From Obelidium mucronatum (Eukaryota > Chytridiomycota > Chytridiomycetes > Chytridiales > Chytriomycetaceae): a DNA stretch of 64,000 bases. Of the stretch, positions 50,443-57,315 are shown piece after piece (position 1 is the first letter of the stretch; every line of letters begins with the position of its first letter). The DNA lies in assembly GCA_025765595.1 (NCBI GenBank), contig JAIVFH010000031.1, forward strand, positions 271,383-335,382, written 5' to 3'. The notes under the pieces are model-generated. The model saw only the letters and a program-made list of their open reading frames with translations. It was not told the origin of the DNA and did not search any database. The position numbers and the translations under genes were made by a program.

Positions 50443-52691
50443 TCACCATTGGGAAAAGTCGATGATGTTTGATTTGGCTACCAGCATGTCATACTTGTGT
50501 TGGTGGACTGTAAAGTTACCAAATACATCCAAGGAATCCAGAGATACGATCTGTGACACCATATTGAGTAGCAACAGCTCATCGTTTGCGTCTTCAATGC
50601 CGCAATGAGCAATAGAGATGTTTTTTAACCCATGACTTGAAGATCCGAGGAGCGCGAGGGCCCCTTGAAGTCCGAAACTGTTCTGCGAAACATCCAGAGT
50701 ACAGAGTTTGCTCGAAGGAGACAGAGAACCAACAATGGTTTCGATCGCTACCCCTGACAACGAACAACGTTTCATAACCAACTCTTGCAGGGATTTGTGA
50801 TTCTTAACACCGTCCACCAACTGCAAGACTACATTGTTCAGGGAAATGTCACTAAGCCGCAAGATCGACAAGTTCTTAACACCAATTTGAAGGCTATTAC
50901 GGAAAACATTCATGACGCGTTTGCTTTGCAATAGGTCGTTTTGTGAAAGGTCTAGCTCGCTCAACACCGAATTATCAGCCAAACTTGACAATCCAACCTG
51001 TGTCACGTTACAGCTTTCAACGCGGAGAATCTTCAAGCTGGTAACTTGAAGGTATTTGTCCCCATTTAAACAGTCGGTGTGTCCAACACGGAGATCTTCA
51101 AGAGGGGACTTTTGGATGGCATGGCAGTCAACCACAACACCAGCATTCCTCGAGATATCAAGAAATACCAACGAAGAGGAAAGAAGTCCTTCGGAGACAA
51201 CAGAACTACAAGTTTCCGTCAATGAGTTTTGACTCAAGTTCAGTTTCTTGATAGGAATGTCCTTTAGAGCCTTGAATAGAGAAAGCACACCACGCTTTCC
51301 AATCTGGTTCTTACTCAGATTCAAATCAACAAGACTCGAAACCAAGGGAAGCATGTGCGCAAGTGCTTTTGAGAGGTCCTCCACAGTCTGATCTGACAGA
51401 AAATTGGAAGAGAGATCCAAATGCAAGAGATGGGTATTGAGCCTCAACGAGCTGGCCAATAAACTGCTTATGGGTTTAAATTCAAATCCGTCGTGATTGT
51501 TTATCGAAACAGTGCGCCAATGAGAGTTGTACTCTAAGGACTTAAAAAGGCATGAAAACTCAATAGCGGAAAGGGATCGGCGAGAAGTGAAGTCAGGAGC
51601 TTCCCATAAAAACTCAGAGTTGCGAAAAACGAGCTCAAATTCCTCTCTCCGGCTGCGTCGTGACCTTTCAATGTCATTAAAGAGAGACAATTGAGACAGC
51701 GCACGCTCGACGACAATTTTAATAGGCATCTTCTCAATCAGCTGAAAACCTAGTAGAAAGATATAAGTTGGTGGCCAGGGATGGTCATTCACATACCCTG
51801 AAGTTGAAACAACGAAGTTAACAATTTTTTACATCGAGGCGATTGGCAAGAAGCGGCCGCCTTGAAAACTTCCCCAATAAAGACTAAATATATGTTACTA
51901 TACCGAAAAAAGTTTGCATCAGAATTACCTGGTAATACAATGCACTTCTTAAACTCCTGCCCAAACAAACAAATTTCCCACTGACGACGAAGGTATTCAT
52001 CTTCTTCTTTTTCTTCACAGATATTTCGAATTGCTTTTTCAGAGATGAGCAGAATCACCACCTTGCTCAATTTCAATTCGGCGCAACCAAAGTCCTAGCC
52101 GCAAATTAGCCACTGGACTTGGGGTAAAAAATCAAATATAATAACTATTACCTCACTATGAACTCTTGAAACAGTTCGAAAGGCTGGATCTCCAAGGAAT
52201 ATTTCCGCATCCTCAGCAGTTTGCCCCATCAAAGCAATCTTCAATCTGAAAAATAGTTCCGATGCCAGCTTGTGATCATTATCATAATCGGATAAATAAG
52301 ACAGGAAGAAGTCAAACTTATATTGCAGGATTGTGTTCGTCAAGACTGAAACTGTGGATTCTGAAGATGACAACGATAACGACGGCGGTAGCGGTGGTGA
52401 CGGGGGCGAAGATGAAAGGGGGTGAGTAGATGGCCAATTGCAAAGAGCTAAATTGGGCGGTGTTGGACTTAAATGCGGGTCTTGAAGAACCACTCCAGAA
52501 TCTTCACGCTTGCTTAATGAAGGCGTAGAATTAGTTACGAGTGAAAGACACTCTTTGGCTTCAGTGTCGGCTTCTGCCAACATGCGTTGAATCTTGGTGG
52601 CAAGCTCATGAATGTCTGTTGGAGATACCGCGGGCTCTGGCGCCTTTTCCGGCACGCTTAAAACATGGATGTCAAAATCTATGCCATCCAA
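50443..52691 (-). CDS. TIR-LRR protein A (divergent TIR domain; N-terminus uncertain)
   Basis: Exons on the minus strand: about 52691-52152, 52094-51929, 51868-51797, 51749-50443. After a Pro/Ser-rich leader the TIR domain (about 52325-51800) reads YKFDFFLSYLSDYDNDHKLA, SELFFRLKIAL, EIFLGDPAFRTV, LKLSKVVILLISEKAI, RRQWEICLFGQEFKK, CIVLP. The LRR region is ribonuclease-inhibitor-like: LLHLDLSSNFLSDQTVEDLS, SLVDLNLSKNQIGKRGVLSL, KKLNLSQNSLTETCSSVVSE, LCTLDVSQNSFGLQGALALL. No transmembrane segment or nucleotide-binding domain is visible. TIR domains signal in immunity and several are NAD+-cleaving enzymes. Here the BB-loop region is degenerate compared with protein B. The upstream exon holding the true ATG was not found; 52691 marks only the open frame. 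Confidence 0.75.
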
Positions 52692-53023
52692 TTGCCAGCA
52701 TCACCTGCTTCGAGAGAGCGGAAAGCAAATTGGGAACATGCTTGAGATCAAAATTTTGATCAAAAAACGTTCCACCACTACTCCACCCCTCATCGGTGTT
52801 TTTTGAAAAAATTCAGCCAACTATAAATGAGTAGTACTAGTTACGATAGAAGATAAAGAGTTTATAGAGACTTTTTTACACCGGTGATAGTGTTTTGTCG
52901 GCACCGTCCCACCAAAATTAAGAATATGGCTGCCACAAACACATGGTCCATGATTCGGCTATTCAAATGAATTCTTGTTTTGTCCATTTGTTGTTTTTCC
53001 CAAATCTGGTGCTTTGAAAATTA
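52692..53023. other. Divergent intergenic region upstream of TIR-LRR A
   Basis: About 330 bp, AT-rich; may contain the missing first exon of TIR-LRR protein A (an ATG on the minus strand near 52743 opens a short frame ending at a GT). Otherwise nothing recognisable. Confidence 0.35.
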
Positions 53024-54066
<1,043 letters not shown>

Positions 54067-54640
54067 ATAATGGGACAACACAATTCAGTAAAAAAGAAAA
54101 TAAATATCTGAATTTGCTCCCAAATCGTTCTCCCAAAAGGAATCACCCATTAGTGGGGGAAAATAACCTGAGATATTTATTGCAAACCCCTTTTTAATAC
54201 TTTGCTATAACACACTTCACTAACCTTTGAAGCCCATCCACATTGACGTACACTGACCCCCCACCATCGTCCAAGCAATTTGCAATTATAGAAAGTCTCC
54301 AACCCCAACCCTAAGCAATACTTTTCGGCAAACGGCGCGCGATTTTGGCAAGCAATTCCAGAGCCGAATCAAGATATCGTCATCAGTTGGCCATTGCCCA
54401 TAGGAATTATTATCCAATTCTGCCATGGGCACAGTCGTGACTTCCGGGTAGTGACAGATTTAAGGATGTGGGGCAAACAGGAAGCCGGAGCGCTCGTCGC
54501 AGATAGACCAGCTCAGCGGTCCGCTGACTCATTAGTGAACAGGTGCGCTCACGCGCCTTTTCTCGATGTGTTATTTAATCAACGTATTAATAATTTCTCT
54601 TCTAAGAGAAGATTTTCTTTCACTAAAAACACACGTCTCA
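54067..54640. other. Intergenic region before TIR-LRR B
   Basis: About 570 bp without a convincing exon. Short frames lack motifs. The final 100 bp are AT-rich and lead into the ATG at 54641, so this is taken as promoter and leader. Confidence 0.4.
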
Positions 54641-56853
54641 ATGGAGGAACTTGCAGGATCTCTCCGTAGTCTCAAAAACGATCTTGAAGTGTCTCTCACG
54701 AAGGTACAGGTGTCGTGGGGTACCAACTTGCCGTGTCTAATTGTTGTACTCAAACACAGATTCGTAAGGCCCGCGCAGCTGTATCGTCGACCCCCAAGAT
54801 GACTCCCGCTACAGTGAGTGATTTGGAGATGCAGGGGTGCGGGGCTGCTGGTTGACTACTTTCGCAGGTCGTTTCGTATGATGACGACCATGAGTCCGCC
54901 AAATTGGCTGCCCTTTCGGACTGGCCCCGGTTTGACAAGGCATACAAGTACCGATATTTCATTTCGTATCGAGTTAATTCCGACAAGGACTTTGCACTGG
55001 AACTGTATTTGCGATTGGAAGTGGAGCTTCGCAAACAAATTAGGTTCAAGGCAGATCCTTTTAAGGGCGTCTTTTTGGATCGCGAGTGTTTAGTTACTGG
55101 CGAGGTACAGCGAAAGAAATATTTCCGCTGGTACTTACAATTATTCTATCAAGGATTGGCGTAATGGGTTTGTCGAAGGTCTCAAGAATGCGCAAGTGGT
55201 ACTTCTTATTGTGTCCAAGGGCTCTTTAGAGAACATGATGTTATCTGATAGTTCCACGGATAATCTTTTGTTAGAATGGGAAACGGCACTAATTGCTCAA
55301 GAATACCATAAATGTCAGATCCTCCCCAGTTAGTGTTCCAACTCGTCACTTTCTTGTCTAACGCTGATTTTCGTTGTAGTTTTTGTGAACAATATCAGGT
55401 CACAAATAGTGCCAGGGGCCTTTCCTAATTCTCGGCCAGCCAAAGTGCCTGGTACAAACAGTTGTTCGTTAAGTGCCAGAACCATTCTTCAATTATTGTT
55501 GGCTTTTCCAGGTAAGCCATATGTTTAGATGGCAAGGTTTGACACATAAATGCTTCTTAGACTATGTGGTGTGGGATGGACAAAACATCGATGCCGTGTT
55601 AAATGCCTCCTTCGAAGCCGTTTCAGTTTTCGAGGCAAATACTTCTGTTTCAAAACGCAGAGAAGAATGCTGGAAGGTCGAATTCGAACCAGATTTTTGG
55701 AATTGCACGACCGTTGCTCTTCCAAATCCTTTGAACAACGAGGAGATCGAGCTTGTTTCTGAGTGTGCACCCTGGAATGTAAACTGGAAGGAACTGAAAT
55801 TGAGTTAGTCATAGCTGTTGCTTTCAGTGGTTTATATGAGTTAAACTTTGGAAAATAGACTTGAACCAAAGCAGAAACTCGAAACTTCTCAAATACTTTG
55901 GGAAAAACCTGGGTCTTTGCAACAATTTAACGGTCTTGGACTTGTCATGTCAAAGTTTGGGAGATGATGGATTGTCAAGCTTGGCAATTGGTTTTGGAAT
56001 GGTGCCCTCGGCTCCTCTCAAGTCCCTCAATCTCAGCAACAATTCAATATCTAACAAGTCAATTTCGACGTTGTTTGATATGCTGCAGGTTGTGGCTGTG
56101 AATACTCTTGACATCAGCCATAACTTGATTGATAACGAGAGTTCCAAGACCATTTCCACAAACCTGACCAATACGAGTCTCAAAGTTCTGAATATTTCAT
56201 TCAACAGCTTCGCTTTTTTACATGCTGATTGTATCATGGAATCAAAGCTGGAGCAACTCTTGGTTGGGTGGACTGACTGTTTGATGGGAAATGAGTATAT
56301 GAGGTGTACGTCAGCAGGAAAGCTACAAATCTTATCAGTGGAAGACTGCAATATCTCTGATGAGGGAATCAGTTACCTCAAAGGCGACTCGAATCTACAA
56401 GAGCTTGATTTGAGTGCGAATGCTCAGATTCAAAATTACAGCACTATGGCGTGTTTGAGTAACGCTTTGCATTTTGGTGCTACGTCATTACGCATTCTTC
56501 GACTTAACAACATTCCTATGAGTGAAAAGAACGCGTTTAAATTGCTTGTTAAAGGAGTGACGGGCGGGGGGCATATTCAAGAACTGCATGTCAAATCCTG
56601 TTCCCTAGTGGCTGACAATGTTATTGAGGATGCCCAACTTCTATTGTCACACATTGTAAGATTGGATATTTCCAATAATCCTCTTGAGTATCGTGGCTTG
56701 ATGCATCTACAAGCTCTGGCAGCTGATACCAAGAATCTTATAGAATTGTGTTTGTCCAATTGTGGAATGTCTGATGCTGAAGTGTACAAAAGTTTTGGGC
56801 ATTTGCCTTTTGTGAGCCTGTGGGGGATCTCTGTTGGTGGAATGTATTTGTGA
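54641..56853 (+). CDS. TIR-LRR protein B, 632 aa
   Basis: Exons 54641-54703, 54760-54813, 54868-55104, 55154-55328, 55380-55511, 55561-55803, 55859-56853; in frame. TIR domain (residues about 65-220): YKYRYFISYRVNSDKDFALE, VFLDRECLVTGEDWRNGF (canonical BB-loop type 'FLD...L..G..W'), LKNAQVVLLIVSKGSLENM, NLLLEWETALIAQEYHKC, QILPIFV. The Glu residues beside Trp in the alpha-C region are candidates for the NADase catalytic Glu. After a linker (to residue 301), about ten ribonuclease-inhibitor-type LRRs follow: LTVLDLSCQSLGDDGLSSL, LKSLNLSNNSISNKSISTL, IVRLDISNNPLEYRGLMHL. Protein A shares the exon plan from the TIR domain on. No signal peptide, membrane segment or NB-ARC domain, so a cytosolic sensor or effector is likely. 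Confidence 0.8.
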
Positions 56854-57243: not shown

Positions 57244-57315
57244 TGCCTACCGGGGGACTTGAACCCCTGGCCTGCACACCCCATGGATGTACCTTACCAA
57301 CTGAGCTAAGGTGAT
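57244..57315 (-). other. tRNA-like element, macrosatellite copy 1
   Basis: On the minus strand an A-box-like TAGCTCAGTTGGTA and a B-box-like GGGGTTCAAGTCCCC (perfect T-arm of four G-C pairs with a seven-base loop) lie at tRNA spacing, with GGTAGGCA at the 3' end. The acceptor stem does not pair properly (about three of seven) and the anticodon stem is weak, so this looks like a tRNA-derived or SINE-like relic with possible Pol III promoter boxes, not a functional tRNA. Confidence 0.6.

What the first reader, a model, noticed from the sequence alone, without database searches (positions are those of the whole stretch)
50443..56853. Divergent pair of TIR-LRR genes without a nucleotide-binding domain in a fungus
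Two paralogues share the plan TIR, short linker, ribonuclease-inhibitor-type LRRs, and matching exon phases, and point away from each other around a METTL21-type methyltransferase. TIR plus LRR is the layout of animal TLRs and plant TNLs. Here there is no membrane segment and no NB-ARC/NACHT, and fungal NLR-like proteins normally use WD, ankyrin or TPR repeats instead. Protein B has a canonical BB loop (FLDRECLVTGEDW) and protein A does not, so they may act as an unequal pair. The locus abuts a recently amplified repeat and a retroelement. This is my best candidate for an undescribed immune-like system.
Basis: partly seen in the sequence, partly recalled or inferred. Interest (0 to 1): 0.78.

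Follow-up and report, generated by a model that had tools for sequence, protein, structure and literature searches.

The report
Chytrid TIR-LRR protein pair
A chytrid fungus has two neighbouring genes that join a TIR domain (an immune and cell-death enzyme module) directly to leucine-rich repeats (a sensor module); it looks like a receptor plan that surveys had not found in fungi, but its function is untested.

Summary
The window is Obelidium mucronatum (Chytridiomycota). B (54641-56853, +) and A (52739-50443, -) re-splice exactly to public models BDR26DRAFT_861104 and BDR26DRAFT_1007402. B passes Pfam cut-offs for TIR_2 and LRR. A's TIR escapes Pfam but is real (47.4 bits to a profile built without it; best of 200 shuffles 3.5). 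In B the TIR runs into ribonuclease-inhibitor/NLRP3-type LRRs; no Walker A, NB-ARC, NACHT or evident membrane helix. The TIR profile's best solved relatives are SARM1 NADases; B keeps the aligned catalytic Glu (E159), A has Gln (Q218), which favours an unequal pair. It is not a one-off: TIR+LRR proteins pass both Pfam cut-offs in five genera of Chytriomycetaceae, in two classes sharing an intron position, and an A-methyltransferase-B neighbourhood recurs in Siphonaria, whose public models however lack most or all of the TIR. Fungal surveys that I read in part report no LRR-bearing NLRs and no fungal Toll-like receptors. Best reading: an LRR-gated, SARM1-like NADase (B) with a catalytically dead paralogue (A). 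Expression, NAD+ cleavage and any immune role are untested; LRRs of this type also occur in flagellar proteins. New variant of a known kind.

The parts
54641..56853 (+). gene B (TIR-LRR, 632 aa; BDR26DRAFT_861104); exons 54641-54703, 54760-54813, 54868-55104, 55154-55328, 55380-55511, 55561-55803, 55859-56853
   Evidence: (identical to P0001)
54868..55511 (+). exons 3-5 of B holding most of the TIR domain; E159-W160-E161 in LLLEWETAL, BB-loop region VFLDRECLVTGEDW
55859..56853 (+). last exon of B, most of the LRR part
50443..52739 (-). gene A (divergent TIR plus LRR, 699 aa; BDR26DRAFT_1007402); exons 52739-52705, 52656-52152, 52094-51929, 51883-51797, 51749-50443
   Evidence: (identical to P0006)
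51929..52094 (-). exon 3 of A; LRRQWEICL with Q218 at the catalytic position
53024..54066 (+).
   Evidence: not compared with a public model
52740..53023 (.). 284-bp interval between the start codons of A and of the methyltransferase gene, a possible two-way promoter
   Evidence: position only, from the models; not tested

Best explanation
A and B are two arms of a duplication in a chytrid family of soluble TIR-LRR proteins. Shown by sequence: domain order, no nucleotide-binding motif, homology of B's TIR to SARM1, loss of the catalytic Glu and of the BB-loop motif in A, relatives in other genera. Inferred: the ribonuclease-inhibitor/NLRP-type LRR binds a foreign or altered-self ligand and holds the TIR inactive; on binding, B molecules assemble through the N-terminal helix and TIR-TIR contacts, without an ATP-driven switch, and cleave NAD+, giving a signal or the death of the affected cell. 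A, whose TIR looks catalytically dead, most likely serves as sensor, scaffold or brake for B through the shared TIR fold. The methyltransferase is probably a mere neighbour.
Against: No expression, activity or phenotype data. The 16 of 16 is inflated, since the search words included the motif. The residue at the place of SARM1's Trp before the Glu is Asn here. A published survey says the Glu does not by itself predict activity (PMC7075850, passages). Siphonaria models lack most (B) or all (A) of the TIR. B against Siphonaria shows no TIR/LRR contrast: 57% over a 63-residue TIR remnant, 51% LRR. A was not found in other genera, but one search was lossy. LRRs of this type also fit flagellar proteins.
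Confidence: 0.42

Rival explanations
1. The TIRs are non-enzymatic: A and B are signalling scaffolds that recruit other TIR proteins, of which this genome has many.
For: 28 TIR_2 matches in the genome, 23 over the cut-off; the Glu alone does not prove NADase activity (PMC7075850, passages); A lacks the Glu.
Against: The closest solved relatives are NADases, and the Glu is kept in all 16 TIR-bearing relatives other than A.
Confidence: 0.22
2. A is a decaying or repurposed paralogue with no role next to B; only B works, alone.
For: Catalytic Glu and BB-loop motif are gone in A; its part around residues 170-183 is modelled below pLDDT 50; a gene lies between A and B; A was found only in Obelidium and Siphonaria (lossy).
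Against: A has open frames and GT-AG introns, its LRR keeps 57% identity over 430 residues with Siphonaria, and its TIR is still recognised, so it is probably constrained.
Confidence: 0.16
3. A and B are structural or regulatory proteins of the flagellum or cytoskeleton; chytrids have zoospores (recalled) and axonemes contain LRR proteins of this type.
Against: The same LRR type fits NLRP3 and ribonuclease inhibitor at least as well. TIR-LRR rows were found only in Chytriomycetaceae, not as expected for a core flagellar part; but these searches were lossy.
Confidence: 0.1
4. TIR and LRR are separate genes joined by gene prediction, as the methyltransferase seems to be in two relatives.
For: Public models of Siphonaria and Entophlyctis do join the methyltransferase to the LRR or TIR-LRR part.
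Against: The TIR-LRR join recurs in five genera over both Pfam cut-offs, A and B share three intron positions and phases, and the class II gene shares the first of them.
Confidence: 0.05

Closest known systems
SARM1 (animal NAD+ hydrolase)
   Same: best solved relative of the TIR profile, E 9e-10; catalytic Glu aligned in B; TIR joined to a repeat domain in a soluble protein
   Different: SARM1 has ARM repeats and SAM domains before the TIR (recalled); here the TIR comes first, LRRs follow, and no ARM or SAM match was listed
Plant TIR-NLR (TNL), e.g. executor/sensor TNL pairs (recalled)
   Same: N-terminal TIR, C-terminal LRR, adjacent paralogues of which one looks inactive
   Different: no NB-ARC, no Walker A; no NB-ARC match in the genome
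Toll-like receptor
   Same: TIR and LRR in one chain
   Different: order reversed, no evident membrane helix, LRR of ribonuclease-inhibitor type
Mammalian NLRP / ribonuclease inhibitor LRR
   Different: no NACHT, PYD or CARD; TIR instead
Fungal NLR and HET-domain proteins
   Same: presumed death-inducing N-terminal domain plus repeats; HET is described as a distant TIR relative (PMC4986451, PMC12881547, passages)
   Different: no NOD, no HET match, LRR instead of WD, ANK or TPR
Class II chytrid TIR-LRR, e.g. BDR26DRAFT_854346 (P0023)
   Same: TIR with DNVLLEWE, intron at the same codon, LRR
   Different: about 1350 aa with a long N-terminal part; on C11 in this genome with a near-identical copy on C437; named NLRC3- or NLRP14-like in two public records though no NACHT is matched

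Membership tests
TIR domain (PF13676) | score over Pfam's cut-off | tested here: met
   B 34.6 bits, cut-off 28
TIR domain (PF13676), protein A | score over Pfam's cut-off | tested here: not met
   no Pfam TIR up to E 1; related to the TIRs of B and others by profile, 47.4 bits
TIR fold | superposition on solved TIRs | tested here: inconclusive
   models show alternating strands and helices in the TIR part; LRR rows filled the fold lists
TIR NADase | catalytic Glu in the helix before strand D | tested here: met
   B E159 on SARM1's Glu by profile alignment; not met in A, Q218
TIR NADase | NAD+ cleavage | not testable with these tools
   needs enzyme assay
SARM1 | ARM repeats and SAM domains | tested here: not met
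   A and B: only LRR and TIR families over the cut-off, no ARM or SAM listed up to E 1
Plant TNL / NLR | NB-ARC or NACHT between effector and repeats | tested here: not met
   no such match in A or B; no Walker A; LRR follows the TIR
Toll-like receptor | ectodomain LRR, one membrane helix, C-terminal TIR | tested here: not met
   TIR is N-terminal; hydropathy at most 1.18 (B) and 1.48 (A)
Fungal HET-domain protein | match to HET (PF06985) | tested here: not met
   not among matches up to E 1
Ribonuclease-inhibitor/NLRP-type LRR | same repeat fold | tested here: met
Known anti-phage TIR systems (PADLOC) | match to a PADLOC model | tested here: not met
   none for P0001, P0006, P0003 up to E 0.1; weak PDC-S66 for P0017 and P0023

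The most novel reading that the evidence does not exclude
Chytrids possess a third TIR receptor plan, distinct from Toll-like receptors and from TIR-NLRs: a soluble LRR fused directly to a SARM1-like NADase, switched on without nucleotide exchange and run as a pair with a catalytically dead TIR-LRR partner. It would be LRR-based intracellular immunity in fungi, a kingdom in which surveys found none.
Probability: 0.25. Interest if true: 0.82.

Novelty: new variant of a known kind. Interest (0 to 1): 0.6.

Why it matters
[quoted passage not shown] A TIR-LRR family in early-diverging fungi would put the pairing of TIR and LRR into a third kingdom, in a form that lacks the NLR motor, and it would make the question whether fungi have innate immune receptors testable in cultured chytrids through a defined enzyme activity.

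Tried and rejected
Rejected or set aside: (1) Chance TIR motif in A: excluded by profile against 200 shuffles. (2) Hidden P-loop domain: no Walker A in 13 of 14 TIR-LRR rows; one ALRERGKS in P0023 at 821, behind the TIR, taken as chance. (3) Real methyltransferase-TIR-LRR fusion: P0002 and P0003 are such models, but P0001 and P0017 start on their own with a similar N-terminus and P0002 skips part of both genes; I treat the fusions as joined gene models; not proven. (4) Whole-protein searches of solved structures hit LRR proteins or unrelated chains; only the TIR-only profile reached SARM1. (5) The printed Foldseek and VIA rows are LRR matches; the absence of TIR chains there means nothing. (6) PADLOC gave nothing useful. 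(7) A tRNA-like stretch seen by eye in the repeat was not called by ARAGORN, run with the bacterial code. (8) Other TIR loci of this genome: open frames were listed with a crude LRR regex, and the printout was cut in the middle, so part of the loci were not seen; in it the C11 and C437 loci wrongly showed no TIR hit because they were not in the hit list used. (9) The A-B BLAST and MAFFT used a mis-spliced B and are not used. (10) Hydropathy over 1.6 in five relatives (P0002, P0003, P0017, P0019, P0021), all but possibly P0019 inside LRR stretches by eye; not taken as membrane helices.

Limits found on checking: (query A) did not list P0001, P0002, P0003 and P0017, which score E 2e-32 or better against A, and (query B) did not list P0006, P0007, P0017, P0018 and P0023, which score E 4e-22 or better. 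So these searches lose true relatives; distribution counts are lower bounds and the absence of A from other genera is not evidence. Candidates scored: 7992, 7984, 489. Protein searches 3 of 3, structure jobs 2 of 2 and paper searches 10 of 10 were used, so neither TIR was folded alone. Statements that something is not in print rest, an open-licence part of PMC only.

Full report
Identity and gene models. The protein search returned a full-length 100% match of B to BDR26DRAFT_861104 of Obelidium mucronatum (Chytridiomycota, Chytridiales, Chytriomycetaceae) and a 99% match of A to BDR26DRAFT_1007402. The window is C31:271383-335382 of an assembly of 48.3 Mb in 694 contigs and ends where the contig ends (335382 bases). 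Re-spliced models equal both public proteins. A and B share three introns of phases 0, 1 and 1; the first sits between E and DW in B and between E and DF in A. The class II gene on C11 is cut at the same place, between Q and DW, with an AAG acceptor as in B.

Catalytic residue. The TIR-only profile (12 rows, A included) has SARM1 chains as its best solved relatives (E 9e-10), then C. elegans tir-1 (E 4e-5), then plant and bacterial TIRs at E 0.008 and above. The printed alignment is ungapped through DNVLLEWETAL over DWVHKEIVTAL, so the Glu before Trp (E159 in B) falls on SARM1's Glu, whose catalytic role is recalled. All 16 TIR-bearing rows other than A have it; A has Q218. The count is inflated because the search words included this motif. 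SARM1's Trp four residues before the Glu is Asn here. A survey of TIR domains says that the Glu is frequent in groups with NADase activity but does not always go with it (PMC7075850, passages).

Family and distribution. Of 16 TIR relatives, 15 are named, all Chytridiomycota (for the genera; the second Phlyctochytrium species was not looked up on its own), one is unnamed. Together with P0002, P0006 and P0007, 14 rows form class I (P0001, P0002, P0003, P0006, P0007, P0017) and class II (P0018-P0025); they come from seven genera, all Chytriomycetaceae. 5 of the 14 pass the curated Pfam cut-offs for both TIR and LRR: Obelidium P0001, Chytriomyces P0017, Siphonaria P0021, Podochytrium P0022, Entophlyctis P0025. 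The other nine miss one or both: P0002 and P0007 have no TIR, A's TIR is divergent, P0023 misses TIR_2 by 0.1 bit, P0020 misses LRR_6 by 1.1 bits, P0003 is below the LRR cut-off though its LRR part aligns with B's at E 5e-43, P0018 and P0019 lack an LRR over the cut-off and P0024 lacks both. P0026-P0029 from Polychytrium, Dinochytrium and Phlyctochytrium have related TIRs without an LRR match. On a tree of 13 of the 14 rows (P0024 left out) the classes separate at 100/100, A of Obelidium and of Siphonaria group at 100/100, B of the two at 100/100, and the four B-like rows at only 81/85. If the root lies between the classes, the A/B duplication is older than the split of these genera. The protein searches lose true relatives, so these are lower bounds.

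Neighbourhood. So the linkage of the methyltransferase with a TIR-LRR gene is shared by three genera and that with A by two. The Siphonaria models lack most (B) or all (A) of the TIR; whether the TIRs are intact there is open.

Evolutionary pattern. B against Chytriomyces: TIR 52%, LRR 37%. B against Entophlyctis: TIR 50%, LRR 28%, with the methyltransferase at 52%. Class II Obelidium against Siphonaria: TIR 81% (to P0018) and LRR 42% (to P0021, a different paralogue). B against Siphonaria gives no contrast: 57% over a 63-residue TIR remnant, 51% LRR, methyltransferase 67% (all). A stable output domain with a faster sensor domain fits receptors, but LRRs tolerate change in general.

Genome context. 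The genome has 28 TIR_2 matches, 23 over the cut-off, none at A or B, whose TIRs are cut by introns. It has 10 NACHT matches, of which those on C70, C74 (two), C84 (two) and C319 lie on the same strand within about 3 kb of TIR matches, and no NB-ARC match. So TIR-NACHT candidates probably coexist with the TIR-LRR type; their gene models were not worked out.

Literature. PMC4986451 (passages): no LRR motifs found in fungal NLRs. [quoted passage not shown] LRR receptors nearly absent from fungi. PMC12881547 (passages): no LRRs identified in fungal NLRs. PMC9815663 (passages): TIR was reported in NLRs from Chytridiomycota. PMC4102429 (passages) lists TIR_2 in a domain table. In the listings of my ten paper searches I saw no report of soluble TIR-LRR proteins in fungi; papers under other licences were not searched.

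Mechanism. Shown: architecture, homology, residue states, partial conservation. Inferred: LRR sensing, autoinhibition, assembly through the N-terminal helix (modelled with modest confidence; no coiled-coil program was run), NAD+ cleavage by B, modulation by A. I give 0.42 to the LRR-gated NADase with an inactive partner.

Noticed in passing
window 53497-53615: An uninterrupted (GT)59.5 dinucleotide array inside what I model as a GC-AG intron of the methyltransferase gene, followed by a 12-base exon 53654-53665.
   Followed up: partly
window 57.2-62.0 kb: Array with period 1999, identical over at least 2.4 kb; a 261-base piece has 13 further matches on six other contigs at 74-100% identity. It holds a tRNA-like stretch by eye (about 57250-57310) that ARAGORN did not call.
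   Followed up: partly
window 62.2-63.3 kb: Multi-copy sequence near the contig end: two near-identical copies (C180 99%, C29 98%) and others at 71-73%; two open frames there gave no Pfam match.
   Followed up: partly
G000 C36:112-127 kb (L038, L039): Cluster of four TIR matches on one strand, interleaved with frames that look by eye like Sel1-type repeats and a P-loop (GSAGSGKST).
   Followed up: no
G000 C70, C74, C84, C319: TIR and NACHT matches on the same strand within about 3 kb: candidate TIR-NACHT genes in the same genome.
   Followed up: no
G000 C11:45.8-50.7 kb and C437:7.2-12.2 kb: Two copies of the class II TIR-LRR gene at mostly 96-99% identity, perhaps two haplotypes or a recent duplication.
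   Followed up: no
P0021 and P0022: Public names 'NACHT, LRR and PYD domains-containing protein 14' and 'NLR, CARD domain-containing protein 3' are given to chytrid TIR-LRR proteins with no NACHT, PYD or CARD match.
   Followed up: yes
P0026-P0029: Chytrid proteins of 1003-1086 aa with an N-terminal TIR of the DNVLLEWE type and no LRR match; a Cys/His-rich middle part with a weak CHORD match in one.
   Followed up: no
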